From Cinnamomum chago (Eukaryota > Streptophyta > Magnoliopsida > Laurales > Lauraceae): a DNA stretch of 64,000 nucleotides. The DNA lies in NCBI GenBank assembly GCA_038049695.1, contig CP142455.1, positions 66,288,501 to 66,352,500 on the forward strand, given 5' to 3'. Shown here one piece after another: positions 14,290 to 64,000 of this stretch. The notes under the pieces were generated by a model, which saw only the letters and a program-made list of their open reading frames with translations, did no database searches and was not told the DNA's origin. Both the position numbers and the translations under genes were made by a program. Positions within the stretch are counted from its first letter, which is position 1. Each line of letters opens with the position of its first letter.

Positions 14290-14298
14290 ATTTTTTTT

Positions 14299-14342
14299 GG
14301 GGTGTGTTATTCGCACAACGAATTTAGCTTTTCCCACACAAT
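14299..14342 (+). repeat. Terminal inverted repeat, outer end of left MULE
   Basis: Begins GGGGTGTGTTATTCGCAC and continues AATTTAGCTTTTCCCACAC. It is more diverged than the other three ends, but the second half is identical. Preceded by A plus eight T at 14290-14298. Confidence 0.85.
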
Positions 14343-14591
14343 TTCTCTCCACACACATAACAAAAATTTAAAAATAACATTTTTTCTTTCCACACACAGC
14401 AGAAATCCCCATTATAGCCCTCTATCCATTTCCCTCTTTCTTCCCACACACACACACGTTTTTCATCCACAGCAGTTTGGGTTTTTCATCCGGCCGATCC
14501 ACCTTGCTTCCGCTCTCTGTCTCCGGCGTCTTTTATCTCTCCGGCATTACTCCGACATTCACAATCCTCTACACCATCTCCTCTTTCAAAG

Positions 14592-14981
14592 GTAAATCTC
14601 TATCTCCACCATTGTCATTTCATTTTTCTTCACCATTCATACTTTACCATTTTATTCATCTTAGATTACCTTTTTTTTCATGAAAACTTGTTATAGGGAT
14701 AGACTCTCATTGAATGTAAGTTTTTACAAACAATGGTGATGATTTTCCTTGCATTTGGGCTGGTTTGTACACCATCATCGCCATTATTTTTCTTAACAGA
14801 AAGCACGGTTTGTTCGGACCTGAAAGTCCGAACAAATTGGATTTGTTCGGATGTTTAGGTCCGAACAAAATGATTTTGTTCGGACTTTCAGGTCCGAACA
14901 AATGGACTTTGTTCAGACCTGAACATCCGAACAGTTTGATGCAAAAACCATAATCCTACAATGTTTGTATTTTTATTTCAG
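14592..14981 (+). other. 5' UTR intron of left PMD gene, carrying palindrome array A
   Basis: Donor CAAAG|GTAAAT at 14591/14592 and acceptor ATTTCAG|AT at 14981/14982, two bases before the PMD start codon. The intron contains palindrome array A. It is a prediction from splice consensus and from the shared layout with the transposase gene, whose first intron also carries an array. Confidence 0.65.
14811..14935. repeat. Palindrome array A, left copy (four TGTTCGG hairpins)
   Basis: Four consecutive imperfect palindromes, each about 28 bp (TTTGTTCGGAC, a short A/G-rich centre such as CTGAAA, then GTCCGAACAAA) separated by about 5 bp. The array lies 512-636 bp from the outer terminus, in the predicted 5' UTR intron of the PMD gene. 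The fourth unit has a TTCAGA variant in one arm. Open reading frames on both strands here are a by-product of the symmetry. Confidence 0.95.
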
Positions 14982-14983
14982 AT

Positions 14984-16853
14984 ATGGACCAACCGAGCTC
15001 TTCTAGGGTGCGACCTACTGCTTCTAACAGAAGGCGTCGCCACCCAGTTGTAGAAGAACCTGTTCTTCGTGAGGAGGACGTTGAAGAACAACCAGAGATG
15101 GAAGAGCAACCATCTCATGGGCCACCAGATAGGTCGTTACTGACCAGCTTTGATACACATATAGCTGGGCATATTTGGAGTGGAGAGGTGTGTTTCGTTT
15201 GTTTCATATGAACTTTGATTGATTGATTAAGTTGTGAATTTATTCGATAATGATGTATCAATTGTTGACTGCAGGATCGAGGAGCATTGAAGTGTCTAAG
15301 CCATGGTCAAAAAGTGTCATTGTGGCAATGGCAATGGAATGGGTCTGATAGGTTCAGGCGATGGATGTCCAGGTCCAGTTTGGCTCCCTTAGTGACTGCA
15401 TCATACCGCAGTGTCAATAAGATTATTGTATCGGGTTTTGTGGAAAGGTGGCAACCTGAGACTAACACCTTTCACATGCCATTTGGTGAGATGACCATCA
15501 CTTTAGATGATGTTGCATCCATCATAGGCATCCCAGTGACAGGGCGGACTGTCTCGTACAATGATAGAATGTCATATGAGGAAGCTCAAGCACTCCTTGT
15601 TGATGCACTAGGAGTAGAAGCCATAGAGGCACATGATGAGTTGATCCAGGTGCGGGGTCAATCTGTTAGATTGGAGTGGCTACGGGAAAGGTTTGGTGGA
15701 ATGTTTGACGATGATGGAGAGGAGATGGTTGACTGTGCAGTCAGAGCTTACCTTCTGTACTTACTGGGATGTACGTTGTTCACAGACAAGAGTGGCACAA
15801 GGGTGCCGATCATATATCTTACACATCTGGTGGATTTGGATAACGTACGTTCATATGCATGGGGTACTGCTGCACTGGCATATTTATACAGGCAGTTGGG
15901 GTTAGCAACGCGGCGTGAAGTTAAACAAATGGTCTGTTACCTGATTCTATTTGAAGCTTGGGTGTACGAGCACTTCGAATGTTTGGCTCCAACTCCAAAC
16001 ATTCACTATCAGCCCTCCCACCTCCGGGTCCATCGATGGGTCTCTCGTAGGGAGTCTGCGCCTTTACAGGCATTACGAGAGAGACTTGATTCCATGAGCA
16101 CTGACTTGGTAATTACGCAAAGTTTTTTACTCATTTTCTATCACATGATGTTATTATTCTGTATTATGTATTTTCATATCTTATACTTGGATTCACTATT
16201 TTCAGGTCACTTGGGACCCATATCGTGATGTTAGGCGCTTTCACCCATTCAACGAGGTTGCATACTACTATGGATGCATCAAGTGCATGGATGTTGTTGA
16301 GCCTTATCATCCGGATAGGGTGCTCAGACAGTTTGGGAGAGTACAAACTATTCCTCCACCGCCATTAGCCCCCATTCGCGCTACGCGAGGTCCGACTGCC
16401 CGTGACTACCATATCGCGTATCAATACATGAATCAAATTTGGGAGGGATGGTCTAATCACCTACTATCTGCATTGAACCGTAGTCAACCGGTAAGGCGTC
16501 TTGCAGATTGTGTTCCCGGGTATATGGATTGGTACAGACGAGTCTCATGGAGGATATTACAAAACCCAAATCATCACTCTAATTTTGCGCCCGGACCCGA
16601 CGAAACACATTCAAGCAATGCGGTGAACTATGAGCATCGTAATTCGGATGCACTATTCATTCTTCATGAAGTCATGGAAAGGGGTGAGGACCATTGGGTT
16701 GAAGATCCACGGGGACTATATACCCATGTGAATCAGGTTGCCCACGTTTTACGGGGAATGTCCATTGCCGATGCTCAACGAACCATTCGACATCCCCACA
16801 TGAGTTCACAGAGTTACACCCGTAGCAGGTCAACAAGGGGAAGGAACAACTGA
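14984..16853 (+). CDS. Plant mobile domain (PMD, aminotransferase-like) protein, TE-borne, intact
   Basis: Three coding exons, 14984-15187, 15275-16108 and 16206-16853, all in phase 0 with GT-AG introns, give 561 residues with no interruption. Residues 1-68 are acidic and Pro/Glu-rich with an RRRR basic patch. The plant mobile domain starts near residue 95, with SGFVERWQPET (ERW at 125-127) and the hallmark GEMTITLDDV (139-148) followed by IIGIPVTG. The C-terminal exon is His/Arg-rich and ends in an SRSTRGRNN tail. PMD proteins include Arabidopsis MAIN and MAIL1, which act in nuclear silencing and genome stability, and many transposon-encoded relatives. Its location inside MULE termini next to a transposase identifies it as TE cargo. 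Possible roles are anti-silencing or transposition support; neither is shown by sequence. Confidence 0.9.
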
Positions 16854-17132
16854 AATGATGAAGAAGTTTAACTAACAAAAACCAATGGTTGTAGTCATTT
16901 TTTTATTATTTTTGTAATTTGGATGGTTGTTATAAGACTTGGAACCTCTTTTAAGTTGTCTTTTATTTGGAAAGTGGTTGTACTTTATTAATTAATTCAA
17001 ATGGTATTTTGTTTACTTTACCTTTGATTTTATGTTTGGAATATGCTTGAATTGTTACAGATGTAGAACCATATATCTTCAATGAAAATCTTCGAAAGGG
17101 ACGAACTGAACATGTTTTGGGAGTTACAGTTA

Positions 17133-17283
17133 ATGTTCGGAAACACAGTGCCGAACGAAACCAGTTTGTTCGGAAACAAAGGTCCGAACCAACCCATTCT
17201 GTTCGGAAACACAGAACCGAACAAAACCATTATGTTCGGCACTGTGTTTCCGAACAGTAACTGTAACCATTCTGTTCGCATTT
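17133..17283. repeat. Palindrome array B, left copy, between the convergent 3' ends
   Basis: Palindromes share the TGTTCGG / CCGAACA arms of arrays A and C but have a different centre (AAACACAGTG in place of ACCTGAAAGT). The array lies between the end of PMD (16853) and the end of the transposase gene (17450), so it probably lies in the 3' UTRs or just beyond them. Confidence 0.95.
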
Positions 17284-17449
17284 AAAAACCTGTCTGTATT
17301 CGGCCGGCAAAACCAATGCATCCTAGTAGTTTTAAAATTTCTTCATACATCAAAGCATTCATTACTAAAATACATTCCAAACTCCATCAAATGTTTAAAA
17401 ATAGTTATTACATGCAACATATTCTCTCACATACACCATGTAGTTCTAT

Positions 17450-20400
17450 TCAATCCAAATCAATTGTCTCACATGTTGTTACATCTGGAGTTACAAGCTC
17501 TTTGAATTGTACAATCCGATCCCTGTATGGAGTCTCCCAACCATTCGCACAAGAGTGATGAAATTGTCTCCACTTATTTGCAATGGGCGGAATTGGATGA
17601 CCAAGTACTAAGAATAATTGAACAAAATGATTCTGATTAACAAAACCTATTGTTCGCTCGTTCCGAGAAGGTGCCGGCACTGGCACAGACCGCAATGGGA
17701 GGAAAGTCAGACACTGTTCTATGCTCAAGTGGTATAACACCAAATTATAACGAGACACTATGAGGTGCCCCATGTCAGACAAAGTCATCCAATAGTCCAA
17801 GCATGGGTTGTCATCATAGTATGATAATGCTTCCACCAATTCCCCAACTCTGTTCTCCACCGCATATAATTGTTTGTAGTGGTCTACATGTGCAAGCAAC
17901 TCTTGTAATAAATCTCTCCTAACTTGTCTCCATTCATCCTCGGCTAGTCCAACCAAACCAGCGATGGTTCTGAATCCACAGTTACCATCAGCTGCGACGT
18001 CCTTTACATGTCGAATGTAAGGCCTCAACCCCACGGGAAATGAGAGAACATAATTATTAATGCTCCTTGACCTCGTACGAATCGCACTAATCTTTTCTCT
18101 TCTCTTTTGTTTGCATTCTAACCGTCCTGAATTAGGAGAGTAGCTATCCTGTGCAGACGATTCCAACTCAAATGTGCTTGGATCTCGTCGGGTTGAGGTG
18201 TCAACTTTCCTACTTGGTCTACCTCTTGTTCTTGATTTTACTTCAGGTTCTATCAAATGAGTACTTTCTGGTTTTGATAGTTCTCGTATCTTCTTTAGAA
18301 GTTGCAGTTTTCTTGTGGAATCATATTCATTGAACCGTTTTTCCAGTAACTGCAAATCTGCCTTACAATCCAGGCCCATAGAAGAACTTGTTGACGGGGC
18401 AGTAGGCAATATATCAAGCTTACACCAATGCGGATGTATGCAACTTAGAGGAATAGGCCGCCCTTGACTTATATATTCAGCAATCTCATGCGCACAAGGT
18501 AATCCATGTGTGCGTCGAATAACACAACCACAAACACTGGCGTCAATTCCAACTACGTTGGCTCTCTTGGTTTCTGTTAAGATTTTCTCAAGTGCATTCT
18601 TAGAGACATTACCGCGAAGCTCTTTGTATTCGGCAGGCTTGAAATTATGTTGCACAATTGTCTTACTTTTCTCAAATGAAGCTTTGATACCGGTATGCTG
18701 CAACTCTAGCAAATTATGGATTTTAGTCCAAACCGCTTCAAAATTTCCTTGACTTGATCCCAGCTGCCTCTTAAGCTGTGCGTGTGAACTCTCAGCCCTA
18801 CATATGATTGTTAAGAGGTGAGACATAGCAATTAATAGGCATAAATCAAATAGAAGGTATTTTTTTAAAAGTACCTGTTTGAAGTAGTATTCCCAAAATG
18901 GATACTATTGTCTGTCCATGCAGAAACAAATCTCTCCTTGTAATGATCTAACCAATTATCCTTCACGTAATTGAGTGCATCAAGATACGTACTGAATTCT
19001 TGATTTAGCTTACGTAGTTGCTCACCAAACTCCTCTTCTGTTGATGAAGACACTAACATATTCCAGCTCATAATAAACCTGTCCCATTTCTCTTTAGTTT
19101 CAAACAACTTTTTGCATCTCGCCAATACGTTTCTATTAATATGCCATTTGCATAATAAATGAGTTGCACTCGGGAATACTCTGTTAATGGCGTTCATGAG
19201 TGACAGTTCTCTGTCCGTCACAATGACATCGGGAAGAATACCATCACCAATAATTTCCCGCAATACACCCAATGCCCATGCATAATTATCTTCGCGTTCT
19301 GCATGAAGGTATGCAAAGCATACAGAAAATGTCATGTCTGTAGATGTGACTCCAACAACCTCCAATAGAGGCATGCGATAACGATCGGTCTTGTAAGTAC
19401 AGTCCATTATTAAAACATGTGGAAATGCACGTAATAAATCTAAACTGCTTGGGTGCGTCCAAATCAAGTCAGTTACAGTATCGCTGTCCTCACAAGTCTT
19501 ATGTCATTCAATGTAATTATGCTCTGTTAGCTTCCCAAACAGTTGTTGCATCTGACTTCTTCCACCCCGATCATTAACTTTATATCTGTAGCGTGCATTG
19601 TATATTGTCTTCATTGTGGTTACGTTTAATTCACTTCTTTGTTTCAACGTAACCAAAATTTCTTTTGGTCTAACCATGCTCTTGGACATATCAACCAGCA
19701 ACTGAGTTTCCTCCTTTGATAATCTGCCTGCAAAAGAATGCCCCTCTAAATGTTCTGCTGCCGAATGATTGTGCACGCCACATGTGACCTCCAACATCCA
19801 ATCATCATTTGAGTCTAACTTTATGCCCTTTAATGCGAAAGGGCATCCACATTTTTTTGAACCGGTTTGTTTGACCCTTTTTCGCTTTAGGCCCTCTTCA
19901 TGCTTATATTGTCCACTTCTCTCGCATGCAAGGAGTACTCTAGGTTTGACACCTATCCGAGCAGCATTTGAAACCTTTATCACAATGACAAATCCGTTTT
20001 CCCGTCCTACACCACGAGCCCAACTGATCAACGAATCGCGAGTGTGAAATATCTACAGTAAACAATTTTAATATGAATTTAGTAACAAATATTTATAATT
20101 TGAGTAATAAATTCACAATCGGACATACCTCTTGAGTTATAAACTCACTGGTATAATCCATGACAAACTCCGATCCAACCTGACTTTCCTGCGTAGAGGC
20201 CTACAAAAAATACATAATAATATGTCAATGTTCGGTATGAAATATCCGAACATATGAAGTGTTCGGAATTTCAGGACTGAACAAAAGGCATTTGTTTGGA
20301 CATTAAAGTCTGAACAAATGCCATTTGTTCGGACTTTAATGGCCGAACAAAATCCATTTGTTCGGACTTTAATGTCTGAACAAAAGCCATATGTTCGGAC

Positions 20401-20562
20401 CTGAAAGTCCGTACATATCGAGAACCTGCAACTCGTTCCAGGTGTGTAAAAAATTAAAAAAAGAGGTAAAATAAATAAAAAACACAAACAAACAAAGGAA
20501 CTGACCTTTCCAATACTACTTTGGTTTAAAGTTACAATTTGATTGTTGTTTTCTTCCTTCAT
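17450..20562 (-). pseudogene. FAR1/MULE transposase with SWIM finger and C-terminal OTU protease; one nonsense codon
   Basis: Four exons with GT-AG introns: 20562-20506, 20200-20129, 20052-18875 and 18797-17450, totalling 884 codons. Residues 50-140 form a WRKY/GCM1-type zinc finger (C86, C111, C113, H137, H139). The MULE transposase has D260 (MDCTYKT), D323 (VTDRE) and E438 (RAESSH), the likely DDE triad. A SWIM finger follows (C525, C527, C537, H539). Then comes a linker and an OTU cysteine protease with D706-G-N-C709 and H826 (NHFVQL), i.e. a complete catalytic signature. The only disabling lesion is TGA at 19504-19506 (residue 226), where the right copy has Trp (TGG). Intron 1 holds palindrome array C. 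It is diverged by a few percent from the right-hand gene. The OTU tail could act as a deubiquitinase. Confidence 0.92.
20229..20417. repeat. Palindrome array C, left copy, inside transposase intron 1
   Basis: About five TGTTCGG...CCGAACA palindromes with centres such as ACTTTAATGT, some with point changes. The array lies 471-659 bp from the inner terminus, mirroring the 512-636 bp distance of array A from the outer terminus. Confidence 0.95.
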
Positions 20563-21185
20563 TGCACTAGAAAGTAGAGGAATGTAAGTGAAGATTAGTA
20601 GAAAAGTGGATGGAGGAAGTAGAGAGTGAGAAGTAGAAAGTAAATTGCTTGAATAGGAGAAGAAAATGGAGGAATGTGAGTGAAGATAAGTTGCCTAGGA
20701 AGGTGGAGGAAGTGAAGAATGAGATGAGTGAGAGAGGAAGAAGCTTGTGTGTGAAAAGAAAATAGGTTTTGAGTTTTTATTGGACTATGTCTATTTTGGT
20801 CATTTCATGAAGGGGCATGAATGTAATAAAAAAAAACAAGTTTCCTTGTGTGGGAAAAGCTAAATTCATTGTGCCAATAGCAAGCCCCATTTTTTTGGGG
20901 CTTGCTATTGGCACACAAAATTTAGCTTTTCCCATACAAGGAAACTTTTTTTTATTACATTCATGCCCCTTCATGAAATGACCAAAATAGACATATTCCA
21001 ACAAAAACTCAAAACCTATTTTCTTTTCACACACAAGCTGGTCTTCTTCCTCTCTCACTCATCTTCACTCACATTCCTCTATTTTCTTCTTCTATTCAAG
21101 CCATTTACATTCTACTTCTCACTCTCTACTTCCTCCATCCACTTGTCTATTAATCTTCACTTACATTCCTCTACTTTCTAGTGCA
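20563..21185. promoter_or_regulatory. Shared divergent promoter region of the two transposase genes
   Basis: The start codons of the two transposase copies lie 623 bases apart, diverging from the palindrome centre. The region holds both inner TIRs and pyrimidine-rich leader-like sequence on each side. Promoter activity is inferred from gene layout; no clear TATA box was assigned. Confidence 0.5.
20845..20940. repeat. Palindrome centre: two inner TIRs around an ATTTTTTT spacer
   Basis: The left element ends ...GTGCCAATAGCAAGCCCC at 20888. The spacer ATTTTTTT is 20889-20896. The right element begins GGGGCTTGCTATTGGCACAC at 20897. The spacer equals the octamer beside both outer ends (14290-14298 with one extra T; 27376-27383). 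This is the arrangement expected if one element inserted into the target duplication of the other. Confidence 0.95.
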
Positions 21186-24100
21186 ATGAAGGAAGAAAAC
21201 AACAATCAAATTGTAACTTTAAACCAAAGTAGTATTGGAAAGGTCAGTTCCTTTGTTTGTTTGTGTTTTTTTATTTATTTTACCTCTTTTTTTAATTTTT
21301 TTTCTCACCTGGAACGAGTTGCAGGTTCTCGATATGTACGGACTTTCAGGTCAGAACATATGCCATATGTTCGGAACAGTAAGTTCGAACATATGGCTTT
21401 TGTTCGGACATTAATGTTCGAACAAATGGCTTGTGTTCGGACTTAAAGTTCCGAACACTTCATATGTTTGGATGTTTCATACCGAACATTGACATATTAT
21501 TATGTATTTTTTGTAGGCCTCTACGCAGGAAAGTCAGGTTGGATCGGAGTTTGTCATCGATTATACCAGTGAGTTTATAACTCAAGAGGTATGTCCGATT
21601 GTGAATTTATTACTCAAATTATAAATATTTGTTACTAAATTCATATTAAAATTGTTTACTGTAGATATTTCACACTCGCGATTCGTTGATCAGTTGGGCT
21701 CGTGGTGTAGGACGGAAAAACGGGTTTGTCATTGTGATAAAGGTTTCAAATGCTGCTCGGATAGGTGTCAAACCTAGAGTACTCCTTGCATGCGAAAGAA
21801 GTGGACAATATAAGCATGAAGAGGGCCAAAAGCGAAAAAGGGTCAAACAAACCGGTTAAAAAAAATGTGGATGCCCTTTCGCATTAAAGGGCATAAAGTT
21901 AGACTCAAATGATGATTGGATGTTGGAGGTCATATGTGGCGTGCACAATCATTTGGCAGCAGAACATTTAGAGGGGCATTCTTTTGCAGGCAGATTATCA
22001 AAGGAGGAAACTCAGTTGCTGGTTGATATGTCCAAGAGCATGGTTAGACCAAAAGAAATTTTGGTTACGTTGAACAAAGAAGTGAATTAAACGTAACCAC
22101 AGTGAAAACAATATACAATGCACGCTACAGATATAAAGTTAATGATCGAGGTGGAAGAAGTCAGATGCAACAACTGCTTGGGAAACTAACAGAGCATAAT
22201 TACATTGAATGGCATAAGACTTGTGAGGACAACGATACTGTAACTGACTTGATTTGGACGCACCCAAGCAGTTTAGATTTATTACGTGCATTTCCACATG
22301 TTTTGATAATGGACTGTACTTACAAGACCAATCGTTATCGCACGCCTCTATTGGAAGTTGTTGGAGTCACATCCACAGACATGACTTTTTCTGTATGCTT
22401 TGCATACCTTCATGCAAAACGCGAAGATAATTATGCATGGGCATTGGGTGTATTGTGGGAAATTATTGGTGATGGTATTTTTCCCGATGTCATTGTGACG
22501 GACAGAGAACTGTCATTCATGAACGCCATTAACAGAGTATTTCCGAATGCAACTCATTTGTTATGCAAATGGCATATTAATAGAAACGTATTGGCGAGAT
22601 GCAAAAAGTTGTTTGAAACTAAAGAGAAATGGGACAGGTTTATTATGAGCTAGAATATGTTAGTGTCTTCATCAACAGAAGAGGAGTTTGGTGAACAACT
22701 ACGTAAGCTAAATCAAGAATTCTGTACGTATCCTGATGCACTCAATTACATGAAGGGTAATTGGTTAGATCATTATAAGGAGAGATTTGTTTCTGCATGG
22801 ACAGACAATAGTATCCATTTTGGGAATACTACTTCGAACAGGTACTTTTAAAAAAATACCAATTATTTGATTTATGCCTATTAATTACTATGTCTCACCT
22901 CTTAACAATCATATGCAAGGCTGAGAGTTCACATGCACAGCTTAAGAGGCAGCTGGGATCAAGTCAAGGAAATTTTGAAGCGGTTTAGACTAAAATCCAC
23001 AATTTGCTTGAGTTGCAGCATACCGGTATCAAAGCTTCATTTGAGAAAAGTAAGAAAATTGTGCAACATAATTTCAAGCCGGCCGAATACAAAGAGATTC
23101 GTGGTAATGTCTCTAAGAATACACTTGAGAAAATCTTAACAGAAACCAAGAGAGCCAACCTAGTTGGAATTGACGCTAGTGTTTGTGGTTGTGTTATTCG
23201 ACGCACACATGGATTACCCTGTGCGCATGAGATTGCAGAATATATAAGTCAAGGGCGGCCTATTCCTCTAAGTTGCATACATCCTCATTGGTGTAAGCTT
23301 GATATGTTGCCTACTGCCCCGTCAACAAGTTCTTCTATGGGCCTGGATTGTAAGGCTGATTTGCAGTTACTGGAAAAACGGTTCAATGAATATGACTCCA
23401 CAAGAAAACTGCAACTTCTAAAGAAGATACGAGAACTATCAAAACCAGAAAGTACTCATTGGATAGAACCCGAAGTAAAATCAAGAACAAGAGGTAGACC
23501 AAGTATGAAAGTTGACACCTCAACTCGACGAGATCCAAGCGCATTTGAGTTGGTATCGTCTGCACAGGATAACTACTCTCCTAAATCAGTTACAATGACA
23601 GAAGTTATAGATAAAGGACGGCTAGAATGCAAACCAAAGAGAAGAGAAAAGATTAGTGCGATTCGTACGAGGTCAAGGAGCATTAATAATTATGTTCTCT
23701 CATTTCCCGTGGGGTTGAGGCCTTACATTCAACATGTAAAGGACGTCGCAGCTGATGGTAACTGTGGATTCAGAGCCATCGCTGGTTTGGTTGGTCTAGC
23801 TGAGGATGAATGGAGACAAGTTAGGAGAGATTTATTACAAGAGTTGCTTGCACATGTAGACCACTACAAACAATTATATGCGGTGGAGAACAGAGTTGGG
23901 GAATTGGTGGAAGCATTATCATACTATGATGACAACCCATGCTTGGACTATTGGATGACTTTGTCTGACATGGGGCACCTCATAGCGTCTCGTTATAATT
24001 TGGTTTTATACCACTTGAGCATAGAACAGTGTCTGACTTTCCTCCCATTGCGGTCTGTGCCAGTGCCAACACCTTTTCGGAACGAGCGAACAATAGGTTT

Positions 24101-24293
24101 TGTTAATCGGAATCATTTTGTTCAATTATTCTTAGTACCTGGTCATCCAATTCCGCCTATTGCAAATAAGTGGAGACAATTTCATCACTCTTGTGCGAAT
24201 GGTTGGGAGACTCCATACAGGGATCGGATTGTACAATTCAAAGAGCTTGTAACTCCAGATGTATCAACATGTGAGACAATTGATTTGGATTGA
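21186..24293 (+). pseudogene. Transposase-OTU gene, right copy, multiply disabled
   Basis: Exons correspond to 21186-21242, 21517-21588, 21665-22841 and about 22919-24293. Lesions compared with the left copy: TAA at 21857-21859 (Ser codon in the left copy), a 1-bp deletion near 22071-22076, TAG for Trp at 22651-22653, TAG for Trp at 22986-22988, and loss of the intron-3 acceptor (TAG became CAA at about 22916-22918). It keeps Trp at the place where the left copy has TGA. The OTU domain is open and retains DGNC and NHFVQL. The linker has 9 extra residues (around 23589-23615) absent from the left copy. Confidence 0.93.
21334..21490. repeat. Palindrome array C, right copy
   Basis: TGTTCGG-type palindromes within intron 1 of the right transposase gene, matching array C of the left copy but with fewer units and different point changes. 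Confidence 0.92.
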
Positions 24294-24495
24294 ATAGAAC
24301 TACCTGGTCATCCAAGCGAATTTATGTTGCATGTAATAACTATTTTTAAACATTTGATGGAGTTTGGAATGTGTTTTAGTAGTTTCTTTTTATTGTATTT
24401 AATGAATGCTTTGATGTATGTACAAATTTTAAAACTACTAGGATGTATTGGTTTTGCCGCCTATTACAGGTTTTTAAAGGTGATGTGAGTTACAG

Positions 24496-24598
24496 TTAAT
24501 GTTCGGAAACACAGGGCCGAACAAACTGGGTTTGTTCGGAAACACAGTGCCGAACAAATGGCATTTGTTCAGCACTGTGTTTCCGAACAAATGTTCAG
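24496..24598. repeat. Palindrome array B, right copy
   Basis: Palindromes with the AAACACAGTG-type centre between the convergent 3' ends of the right transposase and PMD genes. Shorter than the left array B (about 103 against 151 bp). Confidence 0.92.
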
Positions 24599-24863
24599 AG
24601 TTCGTCCCTTTCGAAGATTTTCATATACACTTTTGAAGATTTATGGTCCTACATCTGTAACAATTCAAGCATATTCCAAACAAAAAATCAAAGGTAAAAT
24701 AAACAAAATACCATTTGAATTAACTAAGATAGTACAACCACTTTCCAAATAAAAGACTACTTAAAAGAGGATCCAAGTCTTATAACAACCATCCAAATTA
24801 CAACAAAAAAATCTAAAGAAATACAAGCATTCATTTTTGTTAGTCAAACTTCTTCATATTTCA

Positions 24864-26742
24864 TCAGTTGTTCCTTCCCCTTGTTGACCTGCTGCGGGTG
24901 TAACTCTGTCCACTCATGTGGGGATGTCGAATGGTTCGTTGAGCATCGGCAATGGACATTCCCCGTAAAACGTGGGCAACCTGATTCACATGGGTATATA
25001 GTCCCCATGGATCTTCAACCCAATGGTCCTCACCCCTTTCCATGACTTCATCGAGAATGAATAGTGCATCCGAATTACGATGCTCATAGTCCACCGTATT
25101 GTTTGACTGTGTTTCGTCGGGTCTGGGTGCAAAATTAGAGTGATGATTTGGGTTTTGTAATATCCTCCACGAGACTCGTTTATACCAATCCATATACCCG
25201 GGAACACAATCTGCAGGACGCCTTACTGGTTGACTACGGTTCAATGCAGACAGTAGGTGATTAGGCCATCCCTCCCAAATTTGATTCATGTATTGATACG
25301 CGATATGGTAGTCACGGGCAGTCGGACCCCGCGTAGCGCGAATGGGGGCTAATGGCGGTGGAGGAATAGTTTGTACTCTCCCAAACTGTCTGAGCACCCT
25401 ATCCGGATGATAAGGCTCAACAACATCCATGCACTTGAAGCATCCACAGTAGTATGCAACCTCGTTGAAAGGGTGATAGCGCCTAACATCACGATATGGG
25501 TCCCAAGTGACCTGAAAATAGTGAATCCAATTATAAGATATGAAAATACATAATACAGAATAATAACTTCATGTGATAGAAAATGAGTAAGAAAATTTGC
25601 GTAGTTACCAAGTCAGTGCTCATGGAATCAAGTCTCTCTCGTAATGCCTGTAAAGGCGCAGACTCCCTACGAGAGACCCATCGATGGACCCGGAGGTGAT
25701 CGGGCTGATAGTGAATGTTTGGAGTTGGAGCCAAACATTCAAAGTGCTCGTACACCTAAGCTTCCAATAGAGTCAGGTAACCGGCAATTTGTTTAACTTT
25801 ACGCCGGGTTGCTAACCCCAACTGCCTGTATAAGTATGCCAATGCAGCAGTACCCCATGCATATGAACATACGTTATCCAAATCCACCAGATGTGTAAGA
25901 AATATGATCGACACCCTCATGCCACTCTTGTCTGTGAACAACGTACATCCCAGTAAGTACAGAAGGTAAGCTTTGACTGCACAGTCAACCATCTCCTCTC
26001 CATCATCGTCAGACATTCCACCAAACCTTTCCCGTAGCCACTCCAATCTAACAGATTGGCCCCGCACCTGGATCAGCTCATCATGTGCCTCTATGGGTTC
26101 TACTCCTAGTGCATCAACAAGGAGTGCTTGAGCTGCCTCATATGTCATTCTATCATTATACGAGACTGTCCGCCCCGTCACTGGGATGCCTATGATGGAT
26201 GCAACATCATCTAAAGTGATGGCCATCTCACCAAATGGCATGTCAAAGGTGTTAGTCTCAGGTTGCCACCTTTCCACAAAACCCGATACAATAATCTTAT
26301 TGACAGAGCGGTATGATGCAGTCACTAAGGGAGCCAAACTGGACCTGGACATCCATCGCCTGAACCTATCAGACTCATTCAATTGTCATTGCCACAATGG
26401 CACTTTCTGACCATGGCTTAGACACTTCAGTGGTCCTTGATCCCGCAGTCAACAATTGATACATCATTATCGAAAAAATTCACAACTTAATAAATCAATC
26501 AAACTTCATATGAAACAAACGAAACACACCTCTCCACTCCAAATATACCCAGTGATATGTGTATCAAAGCTGGTCAATAACGACATATCTCGTGGCCCAT
26601 GAGCTGGTTGTTCTTCCATCTCTGGTTGTTCTTCAACGTCCTCCTCACGAAGAACAGGTTCTTCTACAACCTCTTCCACTCGGTAGCGACGCCTTCTGTT
26701 AGAAGCAGTAGGTCGCACCCTAGAAGAGCTCGGTTGGTCCAT
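24864..26742 (-). pseudogene. Plant mobile domain gene, right copy, disabled
   Basis: Exons correspond to 26742-26530, 26442-about 25609 and 25511-24864. The sequence is colinear with the intact left copy. Lesions: the exon-2 acceptor AG reads GG (26443-26444), Trp to TGA at 26386-26388, and Trp to TAG at 25756-25758. Exon 1 has three extra codons relative to the left copy. The exon-3 segment is fully open. Confidence 0.92.
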
Positions 26743-26787
26743 ATCTGAAATAAAAATACAAACATTGTAGGATTATGATGTTTCAAA

Positions 26788-26870
26788 CAAACTGTTCGGA
26801 TGTTCAGTTCCGAACAAAGTCAGGTCCGAACAAATCCATTTTGTTCGGACTTTCAGGTCCGAACAAACCA
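26788..26870. repeat. Palindrome array A, right copy (shortened)
   Basis: Two complete TGTTCGG palindromes and one half unit, against four units in the left copy. The half unit lacks its left arm, so a deletion between repeat units is the simplest explanation. Confidence 0.92.
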
Positions 26871-27331
26871 TGCTTTCTGTGTGGAAAATAAATGGCGATG
26901 ATGGTGTACAAACCAACCCAAATGCATGGAAAAACGTCACCATTGTTTGTAAAAACCTACATTGAATGAGAATCTATCCCCATAACAAGTTTTCATGAAA
27001 AAAAAAAAAGGTAATCTAAGATGGATAAAATGGTAAAGAATGAATGGTGAAGAAAAATGAAATGACAATGGTGGAGATAGAGATTTATCTTTGAAAGAGG
27101 AGATTGTGTAGATGATTGTAAACGCTGGAGTAACGCCGAAGAGATAATTGACGTCGGAGAAGTGGAGAGAGTGGGAAGAAAAATGGATCGGCTGATGTTG
27201 GTGAAGAGAAAGAAAAACGTCTGTGTGTGGGAAGAAAGAGGGAAATGGAGAGAGGGTTAAAATGGAGATTTCTGCTGTGTGTGGAAAGAAAAAATGTCAT
27301 TTTTAAATTATTGTGATGTGTGTGGAGAGAA

Positions 27332-27375
27332 ATTGTGTGGGAAAAGCTAAATTTTGTGTGCCAATAGCAAGATCC
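27332..27375 (-). repeat. Terminal inverted repeat, outer end of right MULE
   Basis: On the minus strand it reads CTTGCTATTGGCACAC then AAAATTTAGCTTTTCCCACAC, matching both inner ends almost exactly. The first bases are changed (GGAT for GGGG). ATTTTTTT follows at 27376. Confidence 0.92.
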
Positions 27376-27383
27376 ATTTTTTT

Positions 27384-41707: not shown

Positions 41708-43552
41708 TGTTAGGGATTTTGTGTATTGCAATTTGATGGATGCATTATCATATTAGCATCATTTGAATTTTCACACATGCTTTGATTTAGAAATTCTTGA
41801 AATCTTGATTTACACATGCATTGTTTTTTAAGACTTGTAGAAATATTCATTTATGCATGTTTTGATTTTAAACTTGGATGTATTTATTTTTGAAAAGAAG
41901 ATTTTTGAATCAAGCATGTCTATGAGTTTAAACCTTTCAAATAAACTTAGGCATTTTAGGTTTCATGTTTGTTAAAACTCTTAGATTGATTTAAAACATG
42001 TTTCCAGGCATGATTCTATGGCCCAGAACTCCCTTTAGCAAAATACTTTGGAGTAGTCTTTTACTTAATCATTTAAGAAGGCAAAACTTTTTTTGTGCTA
42101 TAGTAATTTTGCTACAGTGATTTTGCTACAGTGTTGTCGATCAGCCGAACTCAAGTTCGGTCAATCGACACTTGACCGAACCCACTTCGGTTCGCATTCC
42201 AGAATGCTCAAAACTAGCTGTTTTATGATCGTTGGGAGTTCGGCTGACCGAACTTGATGTCGGTTGACCGACAATAGAGCCGTTGGACTGTTTTTTCTAT
42301 ATAAACAGATCATTCATAGGCCAAATGTGAGGATCCAAGGGATACTCCTTGAGGTGTTTTGAGGCCAAACAAAGGGGAATGAGCTAAGGGAGGCTAGTTG
42401 GTCAAAAAGGAAAGCTAAAGCTTGGAATCATAAGTAAATCATCTATGTAAGCTTAGTTTTCCTTATCATATGTTTTCATGCTTTGCTTAAATTATTAGTA
42501 AATCTTTTTAGGCATGTTAACTATAATTTGTTGTGTCCTTAATATATATATATATATGTGTTGAATTGATTTATTGTTCTGGATACATCACCTTGATTCA
42601 AACTAAGTAAGATTCAAATTGGTTTGTCTAAGTAAATCATGTTAATGAAAACATCTTTGAAATTATATGTAACATGATTTCTATACTTGGTTGAATCTTT
42701 GGTTGTTGTTTTTCATCATAAGAAAATCACTTTCAAATCTATCTTATGTTTTGGATTCAACAACTTCACAAATCACATATATTTTGTTTTAAAGTTTCAC
42801 ACAACTTGCTTAGCATTGATATACATCATTTACAAGTTGGTTTTTAAATTACATGTGATTTGTTCCTTTACTTCAATCAAATCTATCTTTGTGTTTTACA
42901 CCTTCAAAAGCTTTAATATTTTCAACTTGCATTCATTGAGCTATCATTTTTTAACTTGATTGAAGTTTTTCACACACACACCATGAACACTCATCTTTGC
43001 ATTTCATAGAGTGTTGTGTGAATTTGATTTAAACTTTCATATCAGCCTATTTAAGAGGCAATTGTATTGAGCTTTAATTGTATCTCTTAAAGTGTTTGTG
43101 TAGACACTATTTTGAGAAAATCATATTGTAAAGGTTATTGCTTAGCCTAAGAAAAGCATAGTGTCTAGGTTATTGCTTAGCCTAGAAAAGCATAGTGTAA
43201 TAGGTTGATGTTAAGCCTCGAAAAATATCATTGTTAAAGGTTATTGCTTAGCCTTGGAAAGCATATTGTAAAGGTTATTGCTTAGCCTATTGAAAAGCGT
43301 AAATAGTGGAAATCCGGTGGGGTGTTAGATAACAAGCCGGTAGTAGATGTAGGCATTGAGGCCGAACCACTATAAATCATTGTGTGATGGTGAATGCTTT
43401 GTGATGATTATTTTTGTTAACTTCCGCATTTTAGTTCTATATCATCACTTGTGACTAATTGAATTAAAGAAGTTAAAATTGGTCATAATTGGTCACTAAT
43501 TTAAAGCTCACTCTATTCACCCCCCCTCTAGGATTCGGATCCCGGACTTTCA
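41708..43552 (+). mobile_element. Solo LTR (1845 bp) with perfect GGGAG target duplication
   Basis: Begins TGTTAGGG and ends CGGACTTTCA, flanked by GGGAG at 41703-41707 and 43553-43557. It contains a TATA box (TATATAAAC near 42298), a CACCCCCCCTC tract near the end typical of some Copia LTRs, and a minisatellite at 43120-43310. An inverted relative occupies 63066-64000. No internal region is attached, so it is the product of LTR-LTR recombination. Confidence 0.85.
43120..43310 (+). repeat. GGTTATTGCTTAGCCT minisatellite within the solo LTR
   Basis: Five or so units of about 35-45 bp carrying AAAGGTTATTGCTTAGCCT followed by GAAAAGCAT. The related LTR at 63.3-63.5 kb has the complementary version, so the repeat is part of the LTR family. 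Confidence 0.88.
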
Positions 43553-47052: not shown

Positions 47053-47555
47053 ACTTTTGCCGGCGCTAAATAAGCGCCGGGAAAGGTCCATAAAACGTCG
47101 GGAAAAGTTTTTCCCGGCGATTTCTCTTGCGCCGGCAAGGCGCCGGCAAAGGTACGCCAGTAATACCATTTGCCGGCGAAAAAGAGGTAGCGCCGGGAAA
47201 AATCTATCCATTGCCGGCGTTTTATTTCGCCGGAAAAGGAGGTTTATTTCGCCGGGCAAAGACTTTTATTTTTTCAATAATAAATTTTAAAAAACTTTTG
47301 CCGGCGTTTTTTTGCGCCGGGAAAAGATGTTTATTTTTCATAGAAAACTTTTGCCGGCGTTTTTTTGCGCCGGGAAAAGATGTTTATTTTTCATAGAAAA
47401 CTTTTGCCGGCGTTAATTTACGCCGGGAAAAGTGGTTTACTTTTTCAAAAATATATTTAGAAAAACTTTTGCCGGCGTTTTTTGCGCCGGGAAAAGATTT
47501 ACAAATTATGAAAATTATTATTTTTAAATCTTTTTGCCGGCGTCTTTTCTCGCCG
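47053..47555. repeat. CACTA subterminal repeats, left end
   Basis: About fifteen occurrences of TTTGCCGGCG and its complement CGCCGGGAAAA at 20-60 bp spacing, often as convergent pairs. These are expected binding sites for a TnpA-like protein. Confidence 0.93.
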
Positions 47556-47934
47556 GGAATAATTTTTTTTATTTATTTGATTTTTAAATTTCTTTTCCTG
47601 TTTGTCACATTAATAAATTGAAATTTCTAATTCCATTATCCAAGACCACATCTACTACACACCCTACATCCATTTCCATTCCAAAATCATCAACAAATGA
47701 AACAAGAAAATTCATTTCACTTCATATTAATATTCAAACATCCTTACAACATTGAAAACACTTTACCATTACCATTACAAAATTAAAACAAATGCTAACA
47801 TTCTACTATGTACCAACATTCAAATGACCACTAAACACACAAAATTTTATAAGCAAGAAATGACACCCGTGAGTCCGTGACCACCAAACTTCCGTAACAA
47901 GAGCTGCAATACTAGTTGATTTATGATGACAATG

Positions 47935-56636: not shown

Positions 56637-56912
56637 CTTTCCCGGCGAAATTTATGCGCCAGCAAAAGTTAAATTGCCAAATGCCTTAAGGGGAGCGAAC
56701 TTTGCCGGCGATAAAAAAATTTCGCCGGTAAAGTACTAATCATTGCCGGCGACAAAAAAATTTCGCCGGTAAAGTACTAACCATTGCCGACGAAACTATG
56801 TCGCCGGGAAAACTCTACCTTTTACCGGCGAAATAAGATTTTTCGCCGGTAAAAGTTATACTTTTCCCGGCGTTTAATGATTGCGCCGGGAAAAAACGCC
56901 GGTAAAAGTGTA
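56637..56912. repeat. CACTA subterminal repeats, right end
   Basis: About ten units of TTGCCGGCGA and TTTCGCCGGTAAA at short spacing, ending about 13 bp before the terminus. Complementary in sense to the left array. Confidence 0.93.
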
Positions 56913-63065: not shown

Positions 63066-64000
63066 TGAAAGTCCGTGATCCGAACGTGAATAGGGTGAGC
63101 TTGAATAAATGACCAATTATGCCAATTTTAAACTTCTTTAAATTAATTAGTCACTAGTGATGATTATGTAACTAAGTGTGGAAGCTAACAAAAACAATCA
63201 CTACAAATCAAACACCATAACACAAAGGTTTATAGTGGTTCGGCCTCAATGCCTACATCTACTACCGGCTTGTGATTCTACACGCTACTGGATTTCCACT
63301 ATCAATGCTTTTCAATAGGCTAAGCAATAACCTTTACAAAATGCTTTTCAAGGCTAAGTAATAACCCTACAATGTGATTTCCAAGGCTAAGAAATAACCT
63401 CTTGGGTTTTATAGTTCACCCTTAACCTTTACACTGATGCTCTTCTAAGGCTTAGCGCTAACCTATAAACCCTAAGTTGGTTTTTCTCTAAAAAGTGTCT
63501 ACAAAACACTAAAAGAGATTACAATTAAAGCTCAAATGCAATGTCTCTTAATTAGGCAAATATGAAAATGTAAATCTAACTCAACACAAACACTATATGA
63601 ATGCAAAGATGAATGCTTTAAGTGTATGCATAAAAACTTCAATAAAGTTGTAAAATGATAGCTCAAAGAATGTAAGCTTAAAGCTTTTAAAAGTTTAAAT
63701 CACAAATGTTTTGGTTGAAATGAAAATACAAATCACATGTAATTGAAATGAACAACTTGTAAAGATTTGGCTTATCAAGTTATGCAAGTTGTATGAAATT
63801 TAAAAACAACTAAAGCATGTGATTTGTGAACTTGTTGTTTACAAAATAAACTAATTGAACTATATGTTTCAAGGATTGAAAAATAACAAGTTAGAGATTC
63901 AACCAAGAGTTAAGATCAAGCAACAAGTGAATTCAAAGATGTTGGCAAAACATGATTTAGAATATAGAAAACAAACTTGGTTTGAATCAAAGTAAAGGAT
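63066..64000 (-). mobile_element. LTR of the 41708-43552 family, inverted, cut by window edge
   Basis: On the minus strand this ends CGGACTTTCA at 63066, like the LTR at 43552, and is similar all along to 42550-43552. It includes GGTTATTGCTTAGCC units, the CCGGTAGTAGATGTAGGCATTGAGGCCGAACC-like block (63240-63275) and the TTGGTCATTTATTC end. It lacks the C-run present in the other copy. No primer-binding site follows the LTR end, so it is a 3' LTR or solo LTR. Confidence 0.85.

What the first reader, a model, noticed from the sequence alone, without database searches (positions are those of the whole stretch)
14811..26870. TGTTCGG...CCGAACA palindrome arrays at three fixed positions in each MULE copy, two of them in first introns
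Arrays at 14811-14935, 17133-17283 and 20229-20417, and mirrored at 21334-21490, 24496-24598 and 26788-26870. A and C lie about 500-650 bp from the two termini and each in the first intron of a gene; B lies between the convergent 3' ends. Symmetry about both termini suggests transposase-binding subterminal sites. Placement in transcribed introns suggests RNA hairpins (small-RNA source, or splicing control). This structure is not explained by the genes.
Basis: partly seen in the sequence, partly recalled or inferred. Interest (0 to 1): 0.85.

Follow-up and report, generated by a model that had tools for sequence, protein, structure and literature searches.

The report
Palindromic protein-binding arrays in plant transposon
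A family of jumping genes in this plant carries clusters of a seven-letter DNA word in strictly alternating directions at three fixed non-coding places, which look like docking sites for one of its own proteins, probably to stay active or to move; similar docking arrays are known in other plant transposons.

Summary
Six arrays lie where stated: alternating half-sites TGTTCGG and CCGAACA at 17 and 16 bp (period 33). Palindromes: 12 in the window, none in 100 shuffles; 1516 genome-wide, 12 for the reversed control. All 50 listed places lie in this Mutator-like family; the rest were not checked. Array A is present in 23 of 23 assessable copies, B in 22 of 24, C in 24 of 24. Two diverged relatives picked by transposase alone keep regular arrays, though not at all three places. 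Half-sites change 1.6-4 times less than spacers. Units are copied in either orientation and are, on average, not ordered for hairpins. Short non-coding elements keep the ends plus an array. This favours double-stranded binding sites over RNA hairpins. Best reading: docking arrays for an element-encoded protein (the plant-mobile-domain protein or the FAR1-type transposase), working like VANC targets in VANDAL or TnpA sites in Spm, to counter silencing and/or support transposition. Binding, methylation and mobility were not testable here. A new variant of a known kind.

The parts
14290..14298 (.). A/T-rich target-site sequence (ATTTTTTTT) left of copy 1
   Evidence: read; ATTTTTTT again at 20889-20896 and 27376-27383
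14299..20888 (+). MULE copy 1 (PMD gene on +, transposase on -)
   Evidence: ends and terminal inverted repeat shared with other copies; 8-9 bp target duplications in other copies
14299..14345 (+). terminal inverted repeat, PMD side
14592..14981 (+). intron 1 of PMD gene (5' UTR intron; ATG at 14984)
   Evidence: GT, AG and ATG each kept in 21 of 22 aligned copies; no RNA evidence
14811..14933 (+). array A, 4 units of 33 bp, alternating half-sites
14984..16853 (+). PMD gene, main exons about 15275-16108 and 16206-16853 by splice signals
   Evidence: PF10536 E=1.2e-51 and 1.8e-11; sub-threshold DUF1985 E about 0.001
17134..17256 (+). array B (regular part), between the convergent 3' ends
17450..20562 (-). 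transposase gene, frame interrupted in this copy
   Evidence: MULE PF10551 E=8e-26, FAR1 PF03101 E=1.3e-6; open frames
20201..20505 (-). intron 1 of transposase gene
   Evidence: splice signals kept in 21-22 of 22 aligned copies; no RNA evidence
20229..20415 (-). array C
20842..20888 (-). terminal inverted repeat, transposase side
20889..20896 (.). ATTTTTTT between the two copies (shared target site)
20897..27375 (-). MULE copy 2, inverted, 94% identical to copy 1 over ungapped columns
21335..21488 (+). array C' of copy 2
24500..24589 (-). array B' of copy 2 (one-mismatch site to 24598)
26793..26865 (-). array A' of copy 2 (shortened)

Best explanation
The arrays are docking platforms on double-stranded DNA for a protein that the element itself encodes. 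Each half-site TGTTCGG is one contact; half-sites alternate in direction every 16-17 bp (about one and a half helical turns), so a dimer or a chain of dimers could load cooperatively. Three platforms (first intron of each gene and the gap between the 3' ends) cover both promoter regions and the middle of the element. Most likely the bound protein keeps the element unsilenced and expressed, as VANC does in VANDAL elements, and perhaps also helps the ends come together, as TnpA does in Spm. Shown: constraint on the half-site relative to its spacers, fixed spacing, fixed places in the sampled copies, restriction to the family in the places checked, presence in miniature elements. Inferred: that a protein binds, that it is the PMD protein (or the FAR1-type transposase), and what binding does.
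For: Strict alternation at 17/16 bp: 473 of 607 pairs. Divergence of half-sites vs spacers 0.050/0.153 (A), 0.036/0.127 (B), 0.050/0.107 (C) over 22 copies; in 16 close copies 9 of 1684 vs 92 of 4167 non-CpG cells changed (p=1e-6), vs 364 of 32725 in other non-coding DNA (p=0.02) and 358 of 55083 in coding DNA (p=0.76). Relatives picked by transposase identity, not by motif: L025 has 7 half-sites in near-perfect 17/16 register at C and 4 at B; L026 has 7 at B. 50 of 50 listed palindromes lie in this family. Internal-deletion copies L037 and L038, picked by their ends, keep A, B and C. Non-coding L029, L030, L034 (1.0-1.1 kb) and the 654-bp L039 family keep an array. The layout matches VANC21 binding regions, and VANC carries DUF1985 (PMC5735166, passages); four of five PMD exons scanned hit DUF1985 weakly at the same place. 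PMC5418596 (passages) speculates that MULE-captured PMD serves anti-silencing.
Against: No binding, methylation, expression or mobility data. DUF1985 hits are far below the curated cut-off (16-19 vs 35 bits) and the L032 fragment had none. In close copies array C half-sites are only 1.6 times slower than spacers. CpG decay at half-sites is lower than in other non-coding DNA (8 of 336 vs 30 of 531, p=0.026) but not than in coding DNA (66 of 1986, p=0.5), so protection from methylation is not shown. In L039 only 2 of 8 half-sites are exact. Array retention in short elements may follow from recombination between arrays A and C, which would leave two ends plus one array (junction within the array in L030 and L034). 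Copies are related, so counts are not independent.
Confidence: 0.55

Rival explanations
1. The arrays are accessory transposase-binding sites that act in synapsis of the ends (like Spm subterminal repeats); array B is a leftover or a spacer. This overlaps with the best explanation, and both could be true.
For: A and C lie 512 and 473 bp from the termini; in deletion copies L037 (495/491) and L038 (491/511) and at 371-537 bp in short elements L029, L030, L034; B is reduced to a remnant in 2 of 24 copies; the transposase has a FAR1-type DNA-binding domain.
Against: Sites are not inside or next to the 45-bp TIR; B is retained in 22 of 24 copies and at its place in L025 and L026 and L032; nothing shows transposase contact.
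Confidence: 0.25
2. RNA hairpins in the introns (small-RNA source or splicing control) are the selected feature.
For: Arrays fold far below dinucleotide shuffles (four arrays, z -10 to -13.7) and below shuffles of spacer bases (25 of 27 arrays from 9 copies with 0 of 60 shuffles as low); array B of L023 is a strong 189-nt hairpin (z -19.6), and 6 of 49 distinct arrays fold better than re-ordered ones (z below -2).
Against: 0 of 91 altered distinct units show a compensating change (weaker than it looks, since a half-site has many possible partners); over 49 distinct arrays flips and permutations of units fold equally well (mean z +0.18); half-sites keep one particular word while spacers change, which pairing alone does not require; B lies outside the predicted genes.
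Confidence: 0.08
3. The arrays are sites for a host transcription factor that the element exploits as enhancers.
For: Arrays A and C sit in first introns next to both promoter regions.
Against: All 50 listed palindromes are in the transposon family, so no host gene array was seen; central array B is not needed for that; no host factor with this spacing is known to me (recall only).
Confidence: 0.12
4. The arrays are neutral tandem repeats that expanded once and are kept by concerted turnover.
For: Units are gained and lost, often as whole 33-bp steps, and inner spacers match in the same or inverted sense (168 vs 201 pairs).
Against: Half-sites change 1.6-4 times less than spacers in the same arrays; regular arrays persist in L025 and L026, where only coding parts align.
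Confidence: 0.05

Closest known systems
VANDAL21 (Hiun) with VANC21, Arabidopsis
   Same: MULE; short motif repeated in introns, intergenic and terminal non-coding regions; repeat units turn over; motif highly enriched in the family; further genes beside the transposase (PMC5735166, passages)
   Different: VANC21 motif is a 9-mer (YAGTATTAY) in tandem repeats; here inverted 7-mer half-sites at fixed 17/16 bp; second protein is PMD without a cut-off-level DUF1985 hit or any DUF287 hit; VANDAL TIRs are called degenerate (PMC10398659), here TIRs are clear
Spm/En with TnpA (CACTA superfamily)
   Same: element-encoded DNA-binding protein recognises subterminal repeats that are needed in cis and used by deletion derivatives (PMC2613891, passages; motifs in both orientations: recalled)
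   Different: different superfamily and protein; here also a central array, and arrays about 0.5 kb inside the ends
MUDR-group MULEs with antisense PMD gene
   Same: MULE transposase plus PMD gene in antisense (PMC6446971 Table 1, passages)
   Different: repeat arrays are not mentioned in the passages read; the SWIM finger of that group was not confirmed here
Muta1 of Aedes aegypti
   Same: MULE with a repeated 12-bp subterminal motif and many non-autonomous copies (PMC5225508, passages)
   Different: tandem repeats inside the TIR, 3-4 bp apart; no PMD gene or internal arrays mentioned in the passages read

Membership tests
MULE, MUDR group with PMD | MULE transposase domain | tested here: met
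   PF10551 E=8e-26
MULE, MUDR group with PMD | TIRs and 8-10 bp target duplication | tested here: met
   TIR about 45 bp; 8-9 bp duplications at both ends in L006, L009, L010, L011, L012, L015, L017, L018, L019, L037 and L038
MULE, MUDR group with PMD | PMD gene antisense to transposase | tested here: met
MULE, MUDR group with PMD | SWIM zinc finger | tested here: inconclusive
   a C-x-C...C-x-H pattern is visible in the frame (recalled signature) but no Pfam hit at E 0.01
MULE, MUDR group with PMD | placement of the transposase in that group on a tree | not tested
   no reference transposases on hand
VANDAL/VANC anti-silencing system | VANC protein with DUF1985 and DUF287 | tested here: not met
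   only sub-threshold DUF1985 (E 0.001-0.015 in 4 of 5 PMD exons), no DUF287 listed
VANDAL/VANC anti-silencing system | motif enriched in the family and repeated in introns, intergenic and terminal regions | tested here: met
VANDAL/VANC anti-silencing system | motif diverges rapidly between related families | tested here: inconclusive
   kept in the two diverged relatives picked without the motif (L025, L026); other relatives were found by the motif; half-sites are altered in L039
VANDAL/VANC anti-silencing system | protein binds motif and removes DNA methylation | not testable with these tools
   no binding or methylation data
Spm/TnpA-type subterminal control | CACTA superfamily element | tested here: not met
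   MULE transposase and 8-9 bp target duplications
Spm/TnpA-type subterminal control | repeated motif near both ends, retained in deletion derivatives | tested here: met
   L037 and L038; works-like only

The most novel reading that the evidence does not exclude
The plant mobile domain carried by many plant MULEs is a sequence-specific DNA-binding anti-silencing factor, distantly related to the DUF1985 part of VANC, and these alternating palindromic arrays are its targets: a second, PMD-based anti-silencing system, whose target word is steadier than that of VANC and which miniature elements exploit.
Probability: 0.28. Interest if true: 0.8.

Novelty: new variant of a known kind. Interest (0 to 1): 0.6.

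Why it matters
[quoted passage not shown] This family offers a concrete, testable DNA target for that question, with at least 150 transposase matches for comparison and short elements that test cis requirements naturally. If the PMD protein binds the arrays, MULE anti-silencing would extend beyond VANDAL elements.

Tried and rejected
RNA-hairpin reading: tested by compensation, base shuffles and unit re-ordering; strong folding is real but follows from inverted half-sites plus copying of units in either orientation. The DOWN motif linked to MAIN/MAIL1 (CATGCAGTTT in PMC9899485) is not this motif. A text search for TGTTCGG or CCGAACA with transposon words matched 20,991 papers; none of the 10 listed was relevant, which is weak evidence of absence. 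Searches on PMD plus MULE and on MULE plus palindromes or subterminal repeats showed no such arrays in their listings. PDB sequence searches: no hit for the transposase N-terminus, one chance-level hit for the PMD exon (E 0.59). The first divergence script covered only part of many copies and was replaced. Not completed: PF10536 across the genome. Of 50 outer-dyad places listed, nine lie outside the clusters and within its range; I examined one (4104868, the L039 element). 25985421 coincides with a scored L039-family hit; 7553992 is the same 23-mer between two L039-type TIR hits; six were not examined.

Changed on re-check: identity ranges, exon borders and array limits were mended; the ascertainment of L027-L036 and L039, the selection and the remnants of B in L014 and L024 are now told; one membership row went from 'not met' to 'inconclusive'.
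Full report
What is there. Each has a plant mobile domain gene (PMD, PF10536) and a convergent transposase gene with MULE (PF10551) and FAR1 (PF03101) domains (run on copy 1). In-frame stops interrupt the transposase frame in both window copies. Ends are about 45-bp inverted repeats; nine fetched copies show 8-9 bp target duplications.

The arrays. TGTTCGG and CCGAACA alternate at 17 bp and 16 bp, giving a 33-bp period. Among 22 oriented sequences, 473 of 607 consecutive half-site pairs (up to one mismatch) have exactly these two spacings. Palindromes number 12 in the window against 0 in 100 shuffles, and 1516 genome-wide against 12 for the reversed pattern. A lies in a 5' UTR intron of the PMD gene, C in the first intron of the transposase gene, B between the 3' ends. 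The introns are inferred from splice signals kept in 21-22 of 22 aligned copies.

Family survey. A transposase query gave 150 scored matches out of 2786 candidates, 73-100% identical, eight with the same score, which suggests a recent burst. With at least three half-sites (up to 1 mismatch) as the criterion, A is present in 23 of 23 assessable copies (L021 could not be assessed for A), B in 22 of 24, C in 24 of 24; B is reduced to one exact half-site in L014 and one unit in L024 (the 24 are the two window copies, L005-L024, L037, L038). The pattern search lists only its first 50 places, all on C1 below 29.4 Mb: 29 lie within 7 kb of a transposase hit and 21 lie in, or (three of them) within 150 bp of, fetched loci that align with the family, so 50 of 50. 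The rest of the 1516 were not checked. Nine further outer-dyad places in the same stretch lie outside these clusters; three are or look like the L039 family and six were not examined.

Diverged relatives. Only L025 and L026 were picked by transposase identity (73% and 80%) without regard to the motif. L025, whose alignable DNA is 75% identical, has seven half-sites in near-perfect 17/16 register at C and four at B; no regular A was seen, and its PMD gene is represented only by a weak fragment match. L026 has seven at B, but none regular at A or C. L027-L036 were fetched because they hold the palindrome, so they show where it sits, not how often it is lost: in L028 (71-73% DNA identity) arrays are at A and C but no exact half-site is at B; L032 (protein segments 51-62% identical) has B in its 3-kb stretch. 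In L025-L036 together, 40 of 56 consecutive exact pairs are at 17, 16 or 33 bp; the 17 is partly built in by the search.

Constraint. Pairwise divergence of half-sites against spacers over 22 copies is 0.050/0.153 (A), 0.036/0.127 (B) and 0.050/0.107 (C); in the 17 closest it is 0.013/0.042, 0.025/0.075 and 0.037/0.058. In 16 close copies (six left out: L014, L020, L022-L024 and window copy 2), 9 of 1684 non-CpG half-site cells differ from the majority base, against 92 of 4167 spacer cells (p=1e-6), 364 of 32725 other non-coding cells (p=0.02) and 358 of 55083 coding cells (p=0.76). The CpG inside the half-site decays less than in other non-coding DNA (8 of 336 vs 30 of 531, p=0.026), but not less than in coding DNA (66 of 1986, p=0.5). 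Copies share ancestry, so these p-values are optimistic.

DNA site or RNA hairpin. Four arrays fold far below dinucleotide shuffles (z -10 to -13.7), and 25 of 27 arrays from 9 copies fold below all 60 shuffles of spacer bases. That stood against my first reading, so I tested it further. If whole units are flipped and permuted at random, folding is on average as strong as observed (49 distinct arrays, mean z +0.18; 6 below -2), and inner spacers match each other in the same or inverted sense about equally (168 vs 201 pairs). So units have been copied in either direction, which leaves the half-site pattern unchanged. Of 169 distinct units, 91 carry a half-site change and none has the compensating change in its partner; this is weaker than it sounds, because a half-site could pair with many partners. 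The stronger argument is that one word and its spacing persist while spacers change.

Short elements. L029, L030 and L034, met in the list of 50, are elements of 1022, 1077 and 966 bp without an ORF above 94 codons, made of the two family ends and an array 371-537 bp from each end, with 8-bp target duplications in L030 and L034 and an imperfect one in L029. L039, found through the outer-dyad pattern, is a 654-bp element with 89-bp inverted repeats and an 8-bp duplication, holding C/T-rich filler and an array of eight half-sites at exactly 17/16 bp, two of them exact and the rest with one or two changes. A genome search scored 40 of 410 candidates; all 40 are 92% or more identical and match across the array, but the best matches to a query that contains the array were the ones scored, so copies without it would be missed. 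This fits a cis role. It also fits a simple origin: recombination between arrays A and C would leave two ends and one array, and in L030 and L034 the junction lies within the array. Deletion copies L037 and L038, picked by their ends, keep all three arrays.

Mechanism. I favour an element-encoded protein loading on the arrays. In VANDAL21, VANC21 binds a short repeated motif in introns, intergenic and terminal non-coding parts and removes methylation (PMC5735166, passages; PMC10398659, abstract and discussion). VANC contains DUF1985 (PMC5735166, figure legend), and four of five PMD exons scanned from this genome match DUF1985 weakly at the same stretch (E 0.001-0.015, below the curated cut-off). 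PMC6446971 Table 1 (passages) lists PMD and/or DUF in half of the VANDAL group and PMD in antisense in most of the MUDR group. PMC5418596 (passages) speculates that PMD captured by MULEs serves anti-silencing. These are leads, not tests. The TnpA-like alternative (subterminal cis sites; PMC2613891, passages) explains A and C and the short elements but not B. Both could be true, since TnpA is also cited for activation with loss of methylation (PMC10398659).

Verdict. The binding-site reading is supported by constraint; the hairpin reading is not. The element belongs to a known MULE kind; I saw no description of such arrays for it in the listings, which cover open-licence papers only.

Noticed in passing
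window 14290-27383: Two copies sit tail to tail with only ATTTTTTT between them and the same 8-mer outside: a 13-kb inverted repeat (94%) that could give a long hairpin transcript. Insertion into or beside relatives is also seen in L015, L019 and L023, so the family may favour its own ends or target duplications.
   Followed up: partly
L039:189-842: 654-bp non-coding element family (40 scored of 410 candidates, all 92% or more identical) with 89-bp inverted repeats and one 33-bp-period array with altered half-sites.
   Followed up: partly
G000 C1:177194, 2633236, 20672344, 24108840, 25217822, 26954151: Outer-dyad matches (CCGAACA-N-TGTTCGG) outside the examined clusters; not examined, so some may be unrelated to the family. 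The reversed control for this pattern is high (328 vs 1178). The 23-mer at 25217822 is the reverse complement of one in L032.
   Followed up: no
window 17450-18250 (minus strand): The C-terminal part of the transposase frame contains ADGNCGFR, which recalls OTU-type cysteine proteases (recall only; no Pfam hit at E 0.01).
   Followed up: no
L005-L024, element ends: Two kinds of PMD-side terminus coexist, TATTCGCAC and TATTGGCAC, in otherwise similar copies.
   Followed up: no
window 43115-43298 and 63304-63402; L026:8219-8387: Another repeat of period about 34-35 (TTGTAAAGGTTATTGCTTAGCC) within a 0.9-kb inverted pair in the window (78%) and also next to a diverged MULE in L026.
   Followed up: no
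window 47220-47559 and 56702-56793: Tandem repeats rich in GCCGGCG / CGCCGG words, possibly another transposon's array.
   Followed up: no
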